From the NCBI GenBank assembly GCA_026390815.1, contig JAPLFH010000056.1:62001-126000 (forward strand): 64,000 nt of DNA, given 5' to 3'. Made by a program: the position numbers and the translations under genes. Shown piece after piece: positions 4,336 through 13,049 of this stretch (position 1 is its first letter; each line of letters opens with the position of its first letter). The DNA is from Ignavibacteriales bacterium (GTDB lineage Bacteria > Bacteroidota > Ignavibacteria > Ignavibacteriales > SURF-24). The notes beneath the pieces were generated by a model. It was not told the DNA's origin. It did no database searches and saw nothing but the letters and a program-made list of their open reading frames with translations.

Positions 4336-5784
4336 TTAAAATCTATAAGAAAAAGTTAATATTGCATTATGATATTTAATTTCCTGGTTGGTTCTAGAAA
4401 CACCAGAACCGTAATTATCGCCAAAATCTTTCCACCAGCCATACGCATAAGCAGCATCAATAGAAAATGTTTCATCAGCTAAGAAACCGAGTCCACCAGT
4501 AATATATTTCTTATCGTAATCAGTAGGATCTCCTTTATATGGAGAAGGATTAAGGATAAAGCCTCCACGCACACGCACGCCAACACCAGGAATTGTATAT
4601 TCTGCACCAACATTAAAGTTAGCCACGCCTCTGAATAATTCTTTAATATCCTTATTGTTGTCGCTCATCTTTCTTTCGCTTAAACCAGTTGTAAATTCCA
4701 TCTGTGTGTAATCGATATAGGAAATATCGGCATTCAAAAATAAACCAGTATAATTAACAGAACCACCGGCAGTGAATACAAATGGAGTTGTAACATCATA
4801 TTCCACATTACTTTCTAATGGCGGCTCAATTATATAGCTTTTACCAGTTCCAAAATCACTTCTTCCATTCACAATATAAGATTCTTTTATTGTGTATATG
4901 GTTGGAAATTTTATACTTGCACCATACCTGGCTCCAAATTTATTTGATGAAAAAACCTGGTGAAGGAAACCAACTTTTGCATCCCACCCGGCAATATCCC
5001 AATTAAGAACATCGTTTAAATAAAATGTTTGAAAATCTGCTGTTGTAATATCCCCTGGAACGGTTAAAACATTTGTTCCATAAATATTTTTAATATCGTC
5101 TTCATAGTAATCGCGTGTTCTTTTATATGTACCGCTGTATAAATTTAGTGTAGCACCAATATAAATTTCTTTTGCAACTTCAGCGGCAGCAGAGAACGCC
5201 CATTTACCAATTCCACCGCTTGAAAGAATTGTTCCTTCCTGATTTAATCTACCATTAATTGGAGTTTTATTCCCGGTGGAATCGGTAAGGAAAAGCAAAT
5301 ATGAAACATCACCAATTCCTAAAAGAGATTGAATCATCGAGCTGTTACCACCATTATATCCCTTAAAACTAACTGCGTTATTAAATTCCTTTTCACGGCT
5401 ATAACCTGCAGCAACAACAAAGCTTCCTCTTATTGTTGGAAAAGGAAAAACAAAACTTAACTGATCCAATTTAGTAGCACTAGTTGAGTAATCAGTTTGG
5501 TTGTTAAAGAAAGTAACATTGTTATTAAATTTATTGTAATGAAGTCCTCCGGCAAATTCCATTCGCTTCACTAATCCAAGTCCAGCGGGATTGAAAAAAA
5601 CTGCGGAAAAATCATCGCTTAAACCGGTATAGGCATTTCCCATTCCTAATGCGCGCGCATTAAAACCTAATCCAAAATCGGATAATCGTAAAGCATCGGA
5701 ACTGTTTTGCGCTTTAACTTCATTTGCAAAAAAGAAAAATGAAATGAAGAATACCGTGATTAAATAAAAAATATTTCGTTTCAT
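4336..5784 (-). CDS. FadL/PorV-like outer-membrane beta-barrel
   Basis: A 482-residue protein with a signal peptide ending in VKAQ. The mature N-terminus (LSDFGLGFNARALGMGNAYT, then DDFSAVFFNPAGL) is the hallmark of the OmpP1/FadL and PorV/UPF0164 group of outer-membrane barrels, and the rest alternates in barrel fashion, ending in aromatic SYRF. Such proteins carry hydrophobic compounds or, in PorV, hold T9SS cargo; which applies here cannot be told from sequence. It is the last gene of a tight operon with three lipoproteins: its ATG overlaps the TAA of the preceding lipoprotein by one base (TAATG). A hairpin follows its stop. Confidence 0.75.
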   Translation of the reverse strand: MKRNIFYLITVFFISFFFFANEVKAQNSSDALRLSDFGLGFNARALGMGNAYTGLSDDFSAVFFNPAGLGLVKRMEFAGGLHYNKFNNNVTFFNNQTDYSTSATKLDQLSFVFPFPTIRGSFVVAAGYSREKEFNNAVSFKGYNGGNSSMIQSLLGIGDVSYLLFLTDSTGNKTPINGRLNQEGTILSSGGIGKWAFSAAAEVAKEIYIGATLNLYSGTYKRTRDYYEDDIKNIYGTNVLTVPGDITTADFQTFYLNDVLNWDIAGWDAKVGFLHQVFSSNKFGARYGASIKFPTIYTIKESYIVNGRSDFGTGKSYIIEPPLESNVEYDVTTPFVFTAGGSVNYTGLFLNADISYIDYTQMEFTTGLSERKMSDNNKDIKELFRGVANFNVGAEYTIPGVGVRVRGGFILNPSPYKGDPTDYDKKYITGGLGFLADETFSIDAAYAYGWWKDFGDNYGSGVSRTNQEIKYHNAILTFSYRF

Positions 5785-6113
5785 TATCTTCTCCTTAAAT
5801 TTTCATTTCTTCCGCCATCATTATCCCTGGAACTTGTAATACCAGGAATTCTTTTACGAGGCGGATCAGTTTTTTCTGGATTTTGATTTACTGGTTGAAT
5901 TGGTCTATACTTCACTATAGGAACAGTTATAGACACTGGCGGTGGCTCCGGGGGAGGAACAGGATCACAATCACAAGGTTCTTGAGGATCTGGTGGATAA
6001 TAAATAATGGTTGTCGAATAATCCTTATATACTCCAGTATTAAACGGATAGCATCCCGTAAAATAAATTACTGCGGATAAAAAAAATCCTGCAATTAAAT
6101 TTATACGTTTCAT
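5784..6113 (-). CDS. Pro-rich small lipoprotein with RRR tail
   Basis: A 109-residue lipoprotein with lipobox FTGC. The mature part is rich in proline (PPDPQEP, VPPPEPPPV) with a Cys-Asp stretch CDCD, and it ends SSRDNDGGRNENLRRR. The motif SSRDNDG-x-R followed by a terminal RRR is shared with the next lipoprotein upstream, and the terminal RRR with both. It overlaps that gene by four bases (ATGA) and the barrel gene by one. I do not recognise a family. The shared tail suggests a common partner or sorting step, which is inference. Confidence 0.7.
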   Translation of the reverse strand: MKRINLIAGFFLSAVIYFTGCYPFNTGVYKDYSTTIIYYPPDPQEPCDCDPVPPPEPPPVSITVPIVKYRPIQPVNQNPEKTDPPRKRIPGITSSRDNDGGRNENLRRR

Positions 6114-6697
6114 CTTCGTCTCCCGGAATCTGTTGAACGGTTTCCATCATTATCCCTTGAACTTGGAGTACTTGAAGAATTTCTATCAGAAGAATCACTA
6201 CTCTTGGTTGTTTCCTTTGATTGATTAGTGGATGAGGAGGATCCGCTGTTACCGCTTGTAGTTGGCGATGGCAGATTGATTTGTGGACTTCTATCGCGAG
6301 CGGCTCCTCTTTCAGAACTATTGTCCCTGGATTTACCAGTATACTGTTCAGTCTTTTTATATTTAGCTGGCGGGGCAACTTCCAGCCACCAGGGATAATT
6401 ATAATAATATCCATAATTGCCAAAATATGAATCGGAATAGTAATCTTCATTTAAATCGTAATAACTAAAGTTGGAATATGAAGGATGTGTCTTAAGAATT
6501 TCTGGTGTTACAATATTTCTTGGAGCAATATCTTTATGGCAACTGCTACAGTCATCATAGAATGTAACATTATTTTCATATGTGTATCCATTTTCATCCG
6601 TGTTTTCTATACTTGGATGTACAAGAATTGTATAGCATCCCGTAATTAACGATAAAAAAGTTATTATAATTATTACGAATAAAAATTTAGCTTTCAT
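6110..6697 (-). CDS. Lipoprotein with one CxxCH motif and RRR tail
   Basis: A 195-residue lipoprotein (lipobox LITGC). Near residue 50 it has CSSCHKDIAP, a single c-type heme attachment motif. Next comes a very aromatic stretch (YYSDSYFGNYGYYYNYPWW), then a Ser/Asn/Gln-rich low-complexity part, ending SSRDNDGNRSTDSGRRR. If heme is attached this is a membrane-anchored monoheme protein; no Met ligand is obvious, so the CxxCH may instead be a thiol or metal site. It sits five bases after the larger Tyr/Arg-rich lipoprotein and overlaps the next gene by four bases. No known family recognised. Confidence 0.7.
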   Translation of the reverse strand: MKAKFLFVIIIITFLSLITGCYTILVHPSIENTDENGYTYENNVTFYDDCSSCHKDIAPRNIVTPEILKTHPSYSNFSYYDLNEDYYSDSYFGNYGYYYNYPWWLEVAPPAKYKKTEQYTGKSRDNSSERGAARDRSPQINLPSPTTSGNSGSSSSTNQSKETTKSSDSSDRNSSSTPSSRDNDGNRSTDSGRRR

Positions 6698-6702
6698 TTT
6701 GG

Positions 6703-7794
6703 TTACCTTCTTCTTTCACCACCGCCGCTGCTTCCTCTTGATTGAGTTCCAGAACTTCGCGGGGACTCGCTACGTGATGGCGGACTATAACTACGTGGAG
6801 ATTCATTCCTGGTTGGAGGACTATATGTTCTGGGCGTTTCATTTCTTGAAGGAGGGTTGTAGCGTGGAGATTGATTTTTGCTTGGTGGATTATAACTTTC
6901 TCTTCCGTTACTTCTTCTTTCATTTCTTGGATAAACTTTTCTGTTGCCATCATTTCTTTTCCGATCCTGAACTCTGGGATTGCTGCTCTGTATATCTTTA
7001 CCGCGTGGCTTTAATACTTTTATATCTTCATTCCTATTTGTTTTCCCTTTCTTCTCTATCCTGTCTCTTCTATTTTGATCAGCCATTTTTCTTTCAGTTG
7101 TTCTGGATACAGAATTATCAATTCTTGTACGATTGTCTCTGGAAAGCGTTCTGTTGTTACCAGCATCGCGTAAAGTATTCCTATTATCCTTACTCCGCGT
7201 AATAGAAGAATTTGAATTTCTACCGGTCACTAAGTCCCGAGTTCTAAAACTGCTGCCTCTACCGCCATCTTTATCTCTCAATCTAGTAAAATCATTTTTT
7301 CGATATTTTTGATTATCATGAAAATAATAATTGTTATATCCACAATAACCGGGATAGTTCCAATAATTCCAATTCCAGGACCAATATGGATTATAATAAC
7401 TATAAGGTGAGTAATAAATGTCAGACCAGTACCAATCTGAATAAAATGGATCGTAGTAATTATCGAATGATACTCCTAAACTGATTCCCGGGTGGTAACC
7501 CCAATAATATCTTTTATAAAATGGTTGGTAATAAGGTTCATTATAATAATTGTTTACATCTGGGTTATTGGAATAATCACCTTCATCATTTGCATAATAG
7601 TTAGAATCTGCTTGCGTGGAATCGTATTCATCAGCATAATTGTTGTCTCTTTCTTCATAATTTCTTGTTTCTTCTCTCTGGTACTTTTTCTTCTGATACC
7701 GTGAATCCGGTATGTAGATTTGTGTATAACATCCCCAGAAAAAACTGAGTGTGAGAATTACAGTTAAGGATAAAACAATTTTATTATTTTTCAT
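6703..7794 (-). CDS. Tyr/Arg-rich low-complexity lipoprotein with RRR tail
   Basis: A 363-residue lipoprotein (lipobox FWGC) and the first gene of the four-gene operon; GAGG lies 7 bases before its ATG. Residues about 85-165 are extraordinarily aromatic (for example PYWSWNWNYWNYPGYCGYNN). Residues about 165-300 are rich in Arg, Asp and Asn. Residues 301-346 hold four copies of a Y-[NS]-P-P-[ST]-[RK]-x-x-[ST]-P-R repeat, and the chain ends GGGERRR. It contains RLRDKDGGR, a diverged form of the SSRDNDG-x-R box seen in the other two lipoproteins. Function unknown. Low complexity makes other frames look open too, but the lipobox start and tight spacing fix this one. Confidence 0.75.
   Translation of the reverse strand: MKNNKIVLSLTVILTLSFFWGCYTQIYIPDSRYQKKKYQREETRNYEERDNNYADEYDSTQADSNYYANDEGDYSNNPDVNNYYNEPYYQPFYKRYYWGYHPGISLGVSFDNYYDPFYSDWYWSDIYYSPYSYYNPYWSWNWNYWNYPGYCGYNNYYFHDNQKYRKNDFTRLRDKDGGRGSSFRTRDLVTGRNSNSSITRSKDNRNTLRDAGNNRTLSRDNRTRIDNSVSRTTERKMADQNRRDRIEKKGKTNRNEDIKVLKPRGKDIQSSNPRVQDRKRNDGNRKVYPRNERRSNGRESYNPPSKNQSPRYNPPSRNETPRTYSPPTRNESPRSYSPPSRSESPRSSGTQSRGSSGGGERRR
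6757..6894 (-). repeat. Four in-frame copies of an 11-12 residue Pro/Arg repeat
   Basis: Codes for YNPPSKNQSPR, YNPPSRNETPR, TYSPPTRNESPR and SYSPPSRSESPR in the C-terminal part of the large lipoprotein. Unit length 33-36 bases; the copies are diverged at the DNA level, so the repeat is under protein-level selection rather than a fresh slippage product. Confidence 0.8.
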
Positions 7795-7936: not shown

Positions 7937-8755
7937 CTAAAAGATGGGTTTTATAAATTCAACTTTTATTGCACGATCTGCAGAACCGGGGTTAAGTTTT
8001 TTATTGCTCAATAAATCTCGCAAATCGAATCCAAGAGTAAATCCATCGCCTAATGACCATCTTACACCAGCATTTAGATAACCATTACCATCGCCTAAAG
8101 ATTTTTTGGAATTATCATTTATTGCAAAATCATATTCTGCAACTACAGAAATTTTTGAGCCAATTGTTTTTTCTGCCCCAATAATAAAATTTAAATCCTT
8201 TTCCTGATCATCTGTTTCAAGAGAATAATTCATACAACCATGAAGACTTAAATAACCCAGGAATTGAAAATTTTTTGATGCTGAGGCAAAAAATCCAGGC
8301 GATTTAATTTTGAACCGGTTAACTTCAAAGTCTGATGTGCCAAGAAAAGTCCCACTAAATTCGCTGTATTTGGTAAAGAATTGCCCTTTTCCTTGAGAGT
8401 CAAATCCAAGTGCTATGGCAGGGGTGGCGTCGGTTTCTTCAATTATTTTTACTTTGATATCAACTCCAGGAAGTTTATACCATTTAGGTGACCCAACTCC
8501 AATAAAATTTGCAGCGCCGTATGAAATTCCAAAACTAAAATTATCAAAAACACCTACTTCCAATCTGGAGATTAATACACCGTCAGGCATCAAATAAATG
8601 TTTGTTCCAACATTTCCCTTTTTTAAAACTCCTGCGGTTGGCATATCTACAATAAACTGATTCTCCAACTTTGCATCAGCGCCGGCAGTACCTTGGGCAA
8701 AACTACAAACAGTAAGAAGAAGAATAATTGGAAAGATTATTTTGAGGATTTTCAT
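7937..8755 (-). CDS. Outer-membrane beta-barrel protein (YjbH-like)
   Basis: A 272-residue protein with signal peptide ending CSFAQG. The mature chain alternates hydrophobic and polar residues in short strands with Gly/Asn turns, and ends in a strand with terminal Phe (KVEFIKPIF), the usual signal for outer-membrane insertion. A stretch VGVFDNFSFGISYGAANFIG is like barrels of the YjbH/DUF3575 kind. It is separated by about 140 bases from the RRR-lipoprotein operon, on the same strand and upstream of it, so co-transcription is possible. Precise role unknown. Confidence 0.6.
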   Translation of the reverse strand: MKILKIIFPIILLLTVCSFAQGTAGADAKLENQFIVDMPTAGVLKKGNVGTNIYLMPDGVLISRLEVGVFDNFSFGISYGAANFIGVGSPKWYKLPGVDIKVKIIEETDATPAIALGFDSQGKGQFFTKYSEFSGTFLGTSDFEVNRFKIKSPGFFASASKNFQFLGYLSLHGCMNYSLETDDQEKDLNFIIGAEKTIGSKISVVAEYDFAINDNSKKSLGDGNGYLNAGVRWSLGDGFTLGFDLRDLLSNKKLNPGSADRAIKVEFIKPIF

Positions 8756-8827: not shown

Positions 8828-9214
8828 TTATGCTAAATTTTTTACAATTAAAATTTCTAATATCGTGGGTATTAAGGAATAATTTGTACTGATCTTAATT
8901 TGTACTTTTCCTTCTTGTCCGATTGACCTAATAATTAAAATACCCTTCGAAGTATCCTCGTATACAACTTCGATATAATTAAAACCCTCTAAAATTTTAA
9001 ACTCTGTCTTTACTTGCCTGAATGGTGCACGTTTACCAAAAGAATTTATTGGAATTGCTTCAATTCTAACTATTGACTTGTTATCAGTAAAGAGTTCTTT
9101 TGGTTCAACAAGAAAATCAACCTCGTAAATATTTAGAACATATTGCCATATAAGAAATGAAAAGATTAAAGCAAAACTGAGGATAAAGATTATCAATAGC
9201 ATTTTGTAATGCAT
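8828..9214 (-). CDS. Membrane-anchored protein with one beta-sandwich-like domain
   Basis: A 128-residue protein: one N-terminal transmembrane segment (residues about 5-27), then a short domain (DFLVEPKELFTDNKSIVRIE ... GKVQIKISTNYS) with the strand spacing of a bacterial Ig-like/invasin domain. The anchor has no lipobox or cleavage site, so it should stay in the inner membrane facing the periplasm. It lies 26 bases after cysS on the same strand and is probably its operon follower. I do not recognise a named family. Confidence 0.5.
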   Translation of the reverse strand: MHYKMLLIIFILSFALIFSFLIWQYVLNIYEVDFLVEPKELFTDNKSIVRIEAIPINSFGKRAPFRQVKTEFKILEGFNYIEVVYEDTSKGILIIRSIGQEGKVQIKISTNYSLIPTILEILIVKNLA

Positions 9215-9240
9215 GCTAATATATGATTGAAATAGTAGAA

Positions 9241-10668
9241 TTATATTTCAAGTAATTTTTGTTTTTTATATGTGGTTTTATCTTTTTCGTCCTTCAGGAT
9301 AACACCCAGATTTTTTAATTCGTCCCGTATTTTATCTGCAAGTACAAAGTTTTTTTCTTGTTTGGCGTTTAATCTTAATTTGATTAATAGTTTTATTAAT
9401 TCATCTTCTCGCGATTCTTGAAAGGTTGCCTCCTGGTTACCCCAAACCAATATACCAAGAACATTTCCAGTTGTAGGAACTAAAAAATCTTTAATTTTTT
9501 GATAAAAACTAAAATCTAAATTATCATCATTTTCTGAAATAATTTTATTTATTTCACGAATAAAATCAAAAATTACGGCAATTGCTTGAGGAGTATTAAA
9601 GTTATCATCCATTGCCGATTCGAAATCAATTTTATATTTAGAAAACTCAAATTCAGGAATAATTGAAGAGTGATTTTTTAACTTTAATTGATCTTCCACC
9701 TTTTCAATTAAATTGGTAAGCTTTTCCAATCCTTTTTGAGCACCAAAAAGAACATCTTCACTAAAATTCAATGGTCCGGCATAATGTGTCTGGGCAAAAA
9801 ATAACCTTATAGCTTCTGCCGAATATTTTATTAAAATTTCACGCGCTGTAAAAAAATTTCCAGTTGATTTAGACATTTTCTCGTTTTGGATATTCAGAAA
9901 TCCAAAATGCATCCAATAATTCACAAAGTTCTTTCCAATAACGGCTTCACTTTGTGCAATTTCATTTTCATGATGTGGAAAAATCAGATCGCTTCCGCCA
10001 GCATGAATATCTATCGGTGTATTTAAATATTTCATACTCATTGCAGAACATTCAACATGCCAACCAGGTCTGCCTTTACCCCAGGGGCTGTTCCAGAATG
10101 GTTCTCCTTCTTTAGCTTTTTTCCACAAGGCAAAATCCAGTGGATTTTTTTTCTGTATATTTATTTCAACACGCGATCCAGATTCTAATTCATCTATTTT
10201 TTTACCACTCAGCTTGCCATATTCAGGAAACCTCGAAACGTCATAAAAAACATTTCCATCAACATTATAAGCAATTTCCTTTTCTATTAATCTTTTAATA
10301 AGTTCAATTATTTCATCTATGTTTTCAGTTGGTCGAGGATAAAAATCAGCCTTTTTTACTTTTAATTTTTCCAAATCACTAAAGAATGCATTGATGTACT
10401 TTTCCGAAATTTCTCTAAATGCCAAATTTTCGTTCTGGGCTTTTTTAATAATTTTATCATCGATATCAGTTAAATTCATTACGTAGGTTACTTTAAATGC
10501 TTTATATTCAAAATAACGTCGAATAATATCTGCCATTATAAAAGATCTTGCATTCCCAATATGAAAATAATCATATACTGTTGGACCACAGACATAAATT
10601 CCAACTTCATTAGGCACATTTGAGTGGAATTCTTCAGTTTTCTTAGTTAGCGTATTATATATTTTCAT
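9241..10668 (-). CDS. cysS: Cysteinyl-tRNA synthetase
   Basis: Class I aminoacyl-tRNA synthetase that charges tRNA-Cys in the cytoplasm. Seen: the active-site zinc ligand in CGPTVYD (Cys27), the HIGH motif as HIGN (residues 36-39), the second zinc cysteine in VECSAMS, HHENE with the His/Glu ligands, and KMSKS followed by TGNF. Length is 475 residues, normal for the family. I start at the ATG at 10668, preceded by an AG-rich site; an upstream frame to 10713 would add 15 residues unlike any CysRS. Confidence 0.95.
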   Translation of the reverse strand: MKIYNTLTKKTEEFHSNVPNEVGIYVCGPTVYDYFHIGNARSFIMADIIRRYFEYKAFKVTYVMNLTDIDDKIIKKAQNENLAFREISEKYINAFFSDLEKLKVKKADFYPRPTENIDEIIELIKRLIEKEIAYNVDGNVFYDVSRFPEYGKLSGKKIDELESGSRVEINIQKKNPLDFALWKKAKEGEPFWNSPWGKGRPGWHVECSAMSMKYLNTPIDIHAGGSDLIFPHHENEIAQSEAVIGKNFVNYWMHFGFLNIQNEKMSKSTGNFFTAREILIKYSAEAIRLFFAQTHYAGPLNFSEDVLFGAQKGLEKLTNLIEKVEDQLKLKNHSSIIPEFEFSKYKIDFESAMDDNFNTPQAIAVIFDFIREINKIISENDDNLDFSFYQKIKDFLVPTTGNVLGILVWGNQEATFQESREDELIKLLIKLRLNAKQEKNFVLADKIRDELKNLGVILKDEKDKTTYKKQKLLEI

Positions 10669-10964: not shown

Positions 10965-13049
10965 ATGAAAGGGAAAATACTATTCATTTTTACCATTTTG
11001 ATGATTGCTTCACTCCACACTTTTTCTCAACAAGCAATAATTAAGAATGAACCTGTTAGCCCAGAAAAAATAATTAAGATGGGTTTAACTCAAACAACAA
11101 ATTCCGTTTCTACCGGATTAAATGTTGTATCAAATGGTGTATATGTTTACCTTGCACCAGAAAGTATGGATGAAACTGATCCAGTTACAAATGCATCCTG
11201 GTCATTTGTTTCAAAACCGGTTGGTTCAAATGCCGATTTTAACAATATGTCGGATTTGTGGGTAAACTTTAAAACAGATGTAAAAGGCGCCTATAATGTA
11301 AAAATGTCCTTTACAACTGCAAAGGGTTCACACGATACTACACTTACAGTTTATGCTGCCGACTTTATCGGAAATCCAGCATTTGATGGCGTTCAACCGC
11401 AGGGACTTAATTGTATGTCTTGCCATTCTTCAGATGCAAAATTCACAGATATTTATTCACGATGGCAGTCTTCCGGACATGCTAATATCTTTAAGGCACA
11501 AATAACCACACCTACAGCGCATTATAGTCCAAGCTGTATGAAATGTCACACAGTTGGATATGATCACAATGTCGTTTCCAATAATAATGGTTTTGATGAT
11601 AAAGCCACAGAACTTGGTTGGAAATGGCAAGGACCTTCTAATGTTGGCAAATGGGATACATTGAAAACTCAATTTCCTGGATTAGTTGCCTTTGCAGAGA
11701 TTGGTTGTGAAAACTGCCATGGACCAGCAAGTGAGCATGCCCTTGGCAACGGACCAAAATCTGAAACAATTATGATAGATGCAGCTGCAGGCGCTTGCGC
11801 TTCCTGCCATGATGAACCTTGGAGACACAACAAAGTTTCTGAGTATGAAAACTCAGTTCACTCAGAAGCAATTTGGGAAAGTGGATTTGCCCAAAGTTCA
11901 GGTTCAAGTTACAAGAACAATAGTCTTGGTAATTGCATCAGATGCCACGATGGAAATGGTTTTATTAATTATACAAAAGGAAAAACCACAGAAACAAAGG
12001 GTATGACCTTAGGAGATCACAGATCAATTACTTGCGCTACCTGTCATGATCCTCACGGAAATTCAAATGAATTTTCTTTAAGAACAACTCCTGCAAGTGG
12101 TGACACACTTGGCAATGGATATGCTTATACAGAAGGTGGAGTTGGCAAAACTTGTATGAGCTGCCATAAAGCAAGAAAAGATAATGTTTCATATACAAAA
12201 GCAAAGGTTACATCTTCTCATTGGGGACCACATTCTTCAGTTCAAACCGATGTTTTCTTGGGAAAAAATGCGGCAGAATTTGGAACAGCATATAATACTA
12301 CAAATGTCCATACACTTGTATTACAAAATGCCTGCGTTGATTGTCATATGCAAGCAACAACAGATACTGGTACAGTAACCCGCGATAGAGTTGGTGGACA
12401 TAGTTGGAAAATGGCTGATGAAGAACATAATTATGACCACACAGCAAAATGTCAATCCTGCCATCCTGGAAAAACTAAATTTTCTGATTTCACCGCAGAA
12501 GCAGATTATGATGGCAACGGAAATACTGAAAGTATTCAAAACGAAGTAAAGGGATTGTTAACTAAATTAAGTATTGCGCTTCCTCCAGCGGGAATTGATT
12601 CAATTTCTTGGGTTGATATTGGTGCCTTGAATGATGAAAAAATAAATAAAGCATGGTGGAATTATCAACTTATTGCTAACGATGGAAGTTATGGTATGCA
12701 CAATGCACAATTTGCAGTTGCAATACTTCAACAATCTTTAGCTACGCTTACTGGTGTAGAACCAGATAATTCAGCAGCAACTCCAAAGTCCTATGAATTA
12801 TCTCAAAATTTCCCAAATCCATTTAACCCGAATACAAACATCCGTTTCTCTATTCCGGTTTCTGGAAATGTTACTTTGAAAATTTATGATGCTGTTGGTA
12901 CCGAAGTAGCAACACTGACAAATGGTTTCTTAACTGCTGGTTCTTATAAAGTAAACTGGAATGCTGGTAATAACGCTTCTGGTGTTTACTTCTATAAACT
13001 AACATCAAAGAATTTTAATATGGTTAAGAAAATGCTACTCGTAAAATAG
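10965..13049 (+). CDS. Nine-heme c-type cytochrome with T9SS sorting domain
   Basis: A 694-residue secreted multiheme cytochrome. After a signal peptide (ending FSQQ) comes an Ig-like region to about residue 135, then nine CxxCH heme motifs from residue 150 to about 500 (CMSCH, CMKCH, CENCH, CASCH, CIRCH, CATCH, CMSCH, CVDCH, CQSCH), several followed by HG or PHG as in cytochrome c554-like proteins. Residues about 610-694 are a type IX secretion sorting domain (SQNFPNPFNPNTNIRF ... GVYFYKL ... KKMLLVK). So the protein should pass the outer membrane and sit on the cell surface or be released. Likely an electron-transfer protein; an enzyme of the hydroxylamine-oxidase/c554 group is possible. 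It is monocistronic with its own terminator. Confidence 0.92.
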   Translation: MKGKILFIFTILMIASLHTFSQQAIIKNEPVSPEKIIKMGLTQTTNSVSTGLNVVSNGVYVYLAPESMDETDPVTNASWSFVSKPVGSNADFNNMSDLWVNFKTDVKGAYNVKMSFTTAKGSHDTTLTVYAADFIGNPAFDGVQPQGLNCMSCHSSDAKFTDIYSRWQSSGHANIFKAQITTPTAHYSPSCMKCHTVGYDHNVVSNNNGFDDKATELGWKWQGPSNVGKWDTLKTQFPGLVAFAEIGCENCHGPASEHALGNGPKSETIMIDAAAGACASCHDEPWRHNKVSEYENSVHSEAIWESGFAQSSGSSYKNNSLGNCIRCHDGNGFINYTKGKTTETKGMTLGDHRSITCATCHDPHGNSNEFSLRTTPASGDTLGNGYAYTEGGVGKTCMSCHKARKDNVSYTKAKVTSSHWGPHSSVQTDVFLGKNAAEFGTAYNTTNVHTLVLQNACVDCHMQATTDTGTVTRDRVGGHSWKMADEEHNYDHTAKCQSCHPGKTKFSDFTAEADYDGNGNTESIQNEVKGLLTKLSIALPPAGIDSISWVDIGALNDEKINKAWWNYQLIANDGSYGMHNAQFAVAILQQSLATLTGVEPDNSAATPKSYELSQNFPNPFNPNTNIRFSIPVSGNVTLKIYDAVGTEVATLTNGFLTAGSYKVNWNAGNNASGVYFYKLTSKNFNMVKKMLLVK

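What the first reader, a model, noticed from the sequence alone, without database searches (positions are those of the whole stretch)
4336..7794. Operon of three lipoproteins sharing a C-terminal RRR tail plus an outer-membrane barrel
Three lipoproteins in a row, otherwise unlike each other, end in ERRR, GRRR and LRRR. Two share SSRDNDG-x-R in the last 40 residues and the third has RDKDGGR. They are packed with 5-base, 4-base-overlap and 1-base-overlap spacing and lead into a FadL/PorV-like barrel. A shared basic terminal tag on lipoproteins next to a barrel suggests an unrecognised surface-display or anchoring system. No described system that I know has these parts.
Basis: partly seen in the sequence, partly recalled or inferred. 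Interest (0 to 1): 0.72.

Follow-up and report, generated by a model that had tools for sequence, protein, structure and literature searches.

The report
Arginine-capped lipoproteins beside outer-membrane barrels
A row of outer-membrane lipoproteins in Ignavibacteria ends, by clear evolutionary selection, in a short run of positively charged residues, is nearly always found beside the same barrel protein, and may help tie the outer membrane to the negatively charged cell wall, although that role is still a guess.

Summary
Three lipoproteins (A, B, C) end in ERRR, GRRR and LRRR, share an R-[ND]-x-x-G-x-R motif, and sit tightly in front of a FadL-superfamily barrel (F). The operon, usually preceded by a second small barrel (Y), is conserved across Ignavibacteria and in some sister clades. 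The last residue is Arg/Lys in 92-95% of 166 homologues, against 12-15% inside the same tails. I tested the dull explanation: in the window the RRR codons are also the Shine-Dalgarno sites of the next genes. This is not sufficient, because tails stay basic when the next gene lies more than 12 bases away, and ordinary coupled genes do not end this way. An unrelated exported family, DUF6600, shows the same basic end (25 of 27). F is neither BamG (the genome has a separate one) nor PorV. The lipoproteins lack the acidic surface-export signal, so 'surface display' is not supported. My best guess is a periplasm-facing lipoprotein-barrel assembly whose Arg-rich disordered tail binds an anionic envelope polymer, probably peptidoglycan. 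Existence and selection of the tail: about 0.9. Mechanism: about 0.35.

The parts
6703..7794 (-). Lipoprotein A (363 aa): GCYTQ lipobox, acidic Tyr-rich start, Tyr/Trp-rich middle, Arg/Ser-rich disordered tail ending GERRR
6110..6697 (-). Lipoprotein B (195 aa): GCYT lipobox, one CxxCH, YYxxPWW block, disordered tail ending GRRR
5784..6113 (-). Lipoprotein C (109 aa): short B/C-type lipoprotein ending LRRR; present in only some relatives
4336..5784 (-). F: FadL-superfamily outer-membrane barrel (482 aa)
7937..8755 (-). Y: stand-alone 12-stranded barrel matching the N-terminal barrel of YjbH/GfcD; conserved upstream partner
8828..9214 (-). S: 128 aa protein with one N-terminal hydrophobic helix, conserved upstream of Y in the order
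6706..6714 (-). RRR codons of A (AGA AGA AGG); overlap the Shine-Dalgarno-like AGAAGG of B (6706-6711)
6113..6121 (-). RRR codons of B (AGA CGA AGA); overlap the end of the Shine-Dalgarno-like GGGAG of C (6120-6124)
5787..5795 (-). RRR codons of C (AGG AGA AGA); overlap the Shine-Dalgarno-like AAGGAGA of F (5790-5796)
7258..7278 (-). R[ND]xxGxR motif of A (RDKDGGR), between the Tyr/Trp block and the disordered tail
6137..6157 (-). R[ND]xxGxR motif of B (RDNDGNR), starting 15 residues from the C-terminus
5808..5828 (-). R[ND]xxGxR motif of C (RDNDGGR), starting 14 residues from the C-terminus

Best explanation
This is a conserved outer-membrane operon. SHOWN by sequence: A, B and C are predicted lipoproteins. 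A has an acidic Tyr-rich first zone, a Tyr/Trp-rich middle and an Arg/Ser/Gly/Asn-rich disordered tail. The last two to four residues of A, B and C are under selection to be basic, independently of ribosome-binding sites. The lipoproteins travel with a FadL-superfamily barrel (F), and in Ignavibacteria with a YjbH-type barrel (Y). [quoted passage not shown] The basic tail hangs into the periplasm and binds an anionic envelope polymer by charge, most likely the carboxylates of peptidoglycan. A non-covalent link between the barrels and the wall results, and the basic end keeps the free terminus bound. The same basic end on DUF6600 proteins would then be convergent use of the same kind of ligand.
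For: Conserved order S-Y-A-(C/B)-F next to rsgA; lipoprotein directly upstream of F in named Ignavibacteria; A and F present together or absent together next to Y in more distant loci. Basic end is position-specific: R/K 92-95% at -1, against 12-15% in the tail. Shine-Dalgarno control: R/K at the end in 38 of 40 tails whose next detected gene is more than 12 nt away, some of which hide an unrecognised closer gene. Coupled genes in general end with two or more Arg in the last three residues in only 1-2%. DUF6600 proteins outside the operon: 25/27 basic. No acidic export signal after Cys in A/B, but present in BamH of the same order. Charge split in A: median net -10 in the first 100 residues, +13 in the last 100. 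F models as a FadL-type barrel at pLDDT 91.6.
Against: No binding partner, localisation or phenotype is known. The surface-export rule was worked out in Bacteroidia and Flavobacteriia and may not hold in Ignavibacteria. Nothing in the sequences points to peptidoglycan rather than lipopolysaccharide or a barrel as the ligand. The R[ND]xxGxR motif suggests something more specific than charge, and it is largely absent from DUF6600 proteins (2/27).
Confidence: 0.38

Rival explanations
1. Docking signal: the R[ND]xxGxR motif and basic C-terminus form a short linear motif that plugs into barrel F (or Y) during assembly, so that the lipoproteins are subunits of the barrel, as BamH is of BamG.
For: A and F are tied to each other in every clade seen. 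The motif is highly enriched over shuffles (42/58 against 1.7 expected in B/C; 50/108 against 6.6 in A) and all but private to these three proteins in the genome. The closest fold of F is BamG, a barrel that holds a lipoprotein (PMC12611786).
Against: DUF6600 proteins carry the same basic end without belonging to this operon. Some A tails lack the motif.
Confidence: 0.22
2. Protease cap: basic C-termini protect exported disordered tails from periplasmic proteases that grip non-polar C-termini, and have no ligand.
For: Two unrelated exported families with long disordered Arg-rich tails share little but the basic end.
Against: Too few other exported disordered tails to test the rule; the two clear ones found are not basic. 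It does not explain the internal motif.
Confidence: 0.17
3. Split relative of the GfcD/YjbH exporters: Y plus F together export or insert a lipid-anchored polysaccharide or other amphiphile, with the lipoproteins as accessories.
For: Y passes the Pfam YjbH cut-off over the N-terminal barrel only, has 12 predicted strands, and its best PDB hits are FapF, the same match reported for the N-half of GfcD/YjbH (PMC9603273). FadL-type barrels have a lateral opening. GfcD joins a 12-stranded barrel to one with a lateral gate (PMC11494523).
Against: F is of the FadL family, not the GfcD C-terminal barrel. No polysaccharide-export (Wza-type), GfcB or GfcC homologue was recognised next to it. Y also occurs without A and F.
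Confidence: 0.1
4. Surface display or anchoring system with the basic tail as a sorting tag.
For: Conserved tag, conserved barrel.
Against: No acidic surface-export signal; no transmembrane segment before the basic end as in known C-terminal sorting signals; no set of client lipoproteins with the tag in the third of the genome that was read.
Confidence: 0.07
5. By-product of Shine-Dalgarno sequences: AGG/AGA codons placed for the next gene happen to encode Arg.
For: In the window all three RRR tails overlap such a site. Tail Arg codons are 90% AGR in tight pairs, against 67% in the rest of the proteins.
Against: Tails stay basic when the next gene is far away and has its own site; coupled genes in general do not end in Arg; DUF6600 tails are basic too, and in the own genome no same-strand gene follows.
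Confidence: 0.03

Closest known systems
BamG-BamH(-M or I-K) of the Bacteroidota BAM complex (PMC12611786, PMC12578637)
   Same: A FadL-superfamily barrel partnered with lipoproteins; best PDB match of F is BamG 9hiv_F (E 8.5e-22)
   Different: F scores 51.5 bits against the BamG cut-off of 250. The genome has a separate BamG with a BamH-like gene next to it. A, B and C do not resemble that BamH-like protein, and they lack the acidic surface-export signal.
YjbH/GfcD exopolysaccharide barrels (PF06082; PMC11494523, PMC9603273)
   Same: Y matches the N-terminal 12-stranded barrel, above the curated cut-off
   Different: Y has only one barrel, and the rest of the gfc/yjb operon was not seen
[quoted passage not shown]
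   Same: FadL-superfamily fold and a similar N-terminal ARALGMG...NPAG block
   Different: F is far below the family cut-off (46.7 against 90), while 20 other proteins of this genome pass it
DUF6600 (PF20245) exported proteins
   Same: Aromatic-rich domain followed by an Arg/Lys-rich disordered tail with a basic C-terminus (25/27)
   Different: Not lipoproteins, not in this operon, and mostly without the R[ND]xxGxR motif
Braun's lipoprotein (Lpp)
   Same: Outer-membrane lipoprotein with a basic C-terminus; proposed role as a link to the wall
   Different: Lpp is joined through a C-terminal Lys (own knowledge). Here the last residue is Lys in only 6% of A and 28% of B/C, so covalent linkage is unlikely.

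Membership tests
BamG | Score above the NCBIfam BamG cut-off (250 bits) | tested here: not met
   51.5 bits for F; the true BamG is G000:C12:79044-80219 with 250.8 bits
BamG | Binds BamA and BamH | not testable with these tools
   Only gene neighbourhood seen: the BamH-like gene is next to the other barrel
PorV/PorQ family | Score above the NCBIfam cut-off (90 bits) | tested here: not met
   46.7 bits
FadL/OmpP1/Toluene_X superfamily | Pfam gathering score and FadL fold | tested here: met
   44.2 bits against 29.7; AlphaFold pLDDT 91.6; Foldseek hits to BamG, FadL and TodX
YjbH/GfcD (protein Y) | Pfam gathering score | tested here: met
   26.0 bits against 24; 19 of 24 members match at E below 0.01
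YjbH/GfcD (protein Y) | Second, C-terminal barrel | tested here: not met
   Y is about 255-272 aa and matches model positions 11-118 of 658 only
Surface-exposed lipoprotein (Bacteroidota export signal) | Acidic residues directly after the lipidated Cys | tested here: not met
   None in 97/108 A and 42/58 B/C; at least one in the BamH orthologues read. The rule itself is untested in Ignavibacteria.
Lpp-type covalent wall linkage | C-terminal Lys | tested here: not met
   Last residue Lys in 6% of A and 28% of B/C
C-terminal sorting signals (LPXTG, PEP-CTERM and similar) | Motif, then hydrophobic helix, then basic cluster | tested here: not met
   No hydrophobic stretch near the C-terminus; tails are Ser/Arg/Gly/Asn
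c-type cytochrome (lipoprotein B) | CxxCH haem-binding motif | tested here: inconclusive
   Present in 9 of 58 B/C sequences and in a B of a sister clade, absent elsewhere; haem binding not testable

The most novel reading that the evidence does not exclude
Ignavibacteria use a C-terminal basic 'cap' as a shared code on exported Arg-rich disordered proteins of at least two unrelated families (these lipoproteins and DUF6600). The cap is recognised by a common envelope receptor or polymer, and in the lipoproteins it is combined with a second motif that ties them to a FadL-type barrel. Together they form a non-covalent outer membrane-to-wall tether not described before.
Probability: 0.2. Interest if true: 0.75.

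Novelty: new variant of a known kind. Interest (0 to 1): 0.5.

Why it matters
Ignavibacteria and their relatives have a complex outer membrane with almost no experimental work. This operon is conserved through the class and beyond it, and its lipoproteins match no Pfam or NCBIfam family. A position-specific basic C-terminus, kept in two unrelated exported families and not explained by translation signals, makes a clear and cheap hypothesis about how disordered envelope proteins are held or protected. If it is a wall tether it would be a non-covalent alternative to Lpp.

Tried and rejected
F as BamG: rejected, because the genome has a separate BamG and F is far below the cut-off. F as PorV: rejected. 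Shine-Dalgarno artefact: plausible from the window alone, rejected as sufficient by three controls. Covalent Lpp-like linkage: rejected on residue identity. General tag on many lipoproteins: not found in 33% of the genome; motif search over the whole genome found only the operon and one unrelated protein. Link to the type IX secretion system by co-occurrence: every Y-positive genome sampled has SprA, but so do most genomes of the phylum, so this is uninformative. Amyloid secretion from the FapF match of Y: fold similarity only (TM about 0.45), and the same match is reported for GfcD/YjbH. Raw RRR-stop pattern over the genome is uninformative because frame is unknown. No Rfam element in the region; the promoter and terminator scan found fewer sites than the shuffles on average. 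Literature searches found no description of the operon, of DUF6600, or of such tails.
Full report
WHAT IS THERE. On the minus strand, 7794 to 4336, the window holds A (363 aa), B (195 aa), C (109 aa) and F (482 aa), with a 5-base gap, a 4-base overlap and a 1-base overlap. A, B and C have clear lipoboxes (WGCYTQ, TGCYTI, TGCYPF) and end in GERRR, GRRR and LRRR. None matches Pfam or NCBIfam with any significance. F passes the Pfam cut-off for Toluene_X/FadL. Upstream are Y (7937-8755), a small barrel that passes the Pfam YjbH cut-off over its N-terminal part, S (8828-9214) and cysS; downstream is rsgA.

CONSERVATION OF THE OPERON. A search of 96 related genomes with B and reading of about 40 loci shows the order S-Y-A-(C or B)-F, mostly next to rsgA, throughout the order, with A almost always starting CYTQ. 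Many members of one family of the order have only A before F; C is scattered. A scan of named genomes with the F alignment gave 80 loci, all Ignavibacteria or bins labelled Bacteroidota or related. A CYT lipoprotein lies directly upstream of F in at least 74 of the 78 loci that have upstream sequence (some gene starts read). In 20 more distant loci found through Y, A and F are both present near Y in 12 and both absent there in 8. So A and F form the tied pair, while Y can occur alone. In several of these clades a penicillin-acylase (S45) gene follows F; in the window's genome the single S45 gene is elsewhere.

THE TAIL IS SELECTED. After removal of near-identical tails, 108 A-type and 58 B/C-type proteins were compared position by position. 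At -1, R/K is 92% and 95%; at -2, 60% and 84%; inside the tail (-60 to -10) R plus K is 15% and 12%. RRR itself is only the commonest form in A (22/108); RSR, RGR, RTR, SRR, GRK and GRR are common. So the rule is 'basic end', not 'RRR'. A second motif, R[ND]xxGxR, is in 42/58 B/C proteins (1.7 expected in shuffles), mostly 13-15 residues from the end, and in 50/108 A proteins (6.6 expected), mostly 150-240 residues from the end, at the border between the Tyr/Trp block and the tail. Over the whole genome, in-frame R[ND]xDGxR occurs in A, B, C and one unrelated protein. Among 722 other exported proteins with ordinary C-termini in the sample, 11% have two or more basic residues in the last three.

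THE DULL EXPLANATION TESTED. In the window every RRR overlaps the Shine-Dalgarno-like site of the next gene: AGAAGAAGGTAACCAAAATG (A to B), GGGAGACGAAGATG (B to C), AAGGAGAAGATAATG (C to F). Arg codons AGG and AGA are exactly what such a site encodes, and this genome does use such sites (136 of 318 genes against 17 at a control position). But: (i) where the next detected gene starts more than 12 bases away, and often has its own site, 38 of 40 tails still end in R/K (a few of these 40 hide an unrecognised closer gene); (ii) in 100 and 208 other tightly coupled pairs only 1-2% of upstream proteins have two or more Arg in the last three; (iii) DUF6600 proteins, which lie elsewhere and in the own genome have no same-strand gene behind them, end in basic residues in 25 of 27 cases. 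The site therefore shapes codon choice (90% AGR in tight pairs against 67% elsewhere) but does not explain the residues.

A FOURTH PROTEIN WITH THE SAME END. Reading 1.51 Mb of the genome gave 1181 ORFs of at least 80 aa; four end in RRR: A, B, C and a 439 aa exported, non-lipidated DUF6600 protein ending SRSSNGGGERRR (A ends SRGSSGGGERRR). Its relatives keep the basic end. The exported proteins with Arg-rich disordered tails that the scan found belong almost all to these two families. This weakens the idea of an operon-specific anchor tag and points to a shared property of such tails.

WHAT THE BARRELS ARE. F: AlphaFold pLDDT 91.6; PDB matches BamG (9hiv_F, E 8.5e-22), FadL and TodX, with PorV far lower; the F and BamG profiles align over nearly the whole length at 98.5% probability. 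The genome has its own BamG, with a BamH-like gene beside it, and 20 proteins above the PorV-family cut-off. F is thus a separate branch of the FadL superfamily. Y: 12 predicted strands, pLDDT 77, best PDB match FapF at TM about 0.45. PMC9603273 reports the same match for the N-terminal half of GfcD/YjbH, and PMC11494523 describes that half as a 12-stranded barrel. Y is the only YjbH-family protein in the genome.

WHICH SIDE. Bacteroidota surface lipoproteins carry acidic residues just after the lipidated Cys (PMC12578637). A and B/C have none at +2 to +7 in 97/108 and 42/58 cases. The BamH orthologues of the same order (CSDSPGP, CNQDPTS, CKSDEPG, CSDEPSS and others) all have at least one. This favours the periplasmic face, with the caveat that the rule has not been tested in Ignavibacteria.

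ARCHITECTURE OF A. The first 60 residues are 22% D/E and 18% Y; residues 60-140 are 26% Y and 8% W; the last 150 are 15% R and 19% S. Median net charge is -10 in the first 100 and +13 in the last 100 residues. A chain of this kind could bind polyanions, and the Tyr/Arg content could also favour self-association; both are inference.

CONCLUSION. Real, conserved and undescribed in the libraries and papers searched. The most likely role is a periplasm-facing lipoprotein-barrel assembly whose basic, disordered tail binds an anionic envelope polymer, with peptidoglycan the first candidate. Docking into a barrel and protection from proteases are serious rivals. Limits: signal peptides and disorder were judged by simple rules; homologues are not independent; only 33% of the genome was read gene by gene; no experiment exists.

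Noticed in passing
G000:C7:143149-144468 (L279:3149-4468): Exported DUF6600 protein ending GGGERRR; DUF6600 proteins of the order end in basic residues in 25 of 27 cases, and in this genome no same-strand gene follows.
   Followed up: yes
window 6110-6697; L025, L026, L027, L028, L029, L030, L042, L230: Lipoprotein B of two families of the order and of a sister clade carries an HP(x)V...CxxCH pattern, a single CxxCH that could bind haem or a metal; the third family of the order lacks it.
   Followed up: partly
L223, L224, L225, L228, L232, L233, L239, L240, L241: A penicillin-acylase-like (S45) gene follows F in several sister clades (three checked with Pfam), which may hint at an N-acyl or hydrophobic substrate for F.
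   Followed up: partly
G000, 28 places listed: The genome has 20 proteins above the PorV-family cut-off, many beside proteins with type IX sorting-like C-termini: an unusual expansion of possible shuttle proteins.
   Followed up: no
window 7937-8755: Y is a free-standing version of the N-terminal barrel of GfcD/YjbH and is found without A and F in other clades; it may be an old module of its own.
   Followed up: partly
window 10965-13049: Multi-CxxCH protein with a type IX sorting-like C-terminus, a probable secreted multihaem cytochrome.
   Followed up: no
L032 (G047) 9093-9521: A B lipoprotein that has lost its basic tail (ends SEKTYE) and overlaps F by 20 bases, possibly a recent frameshift.
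   Followed up: no
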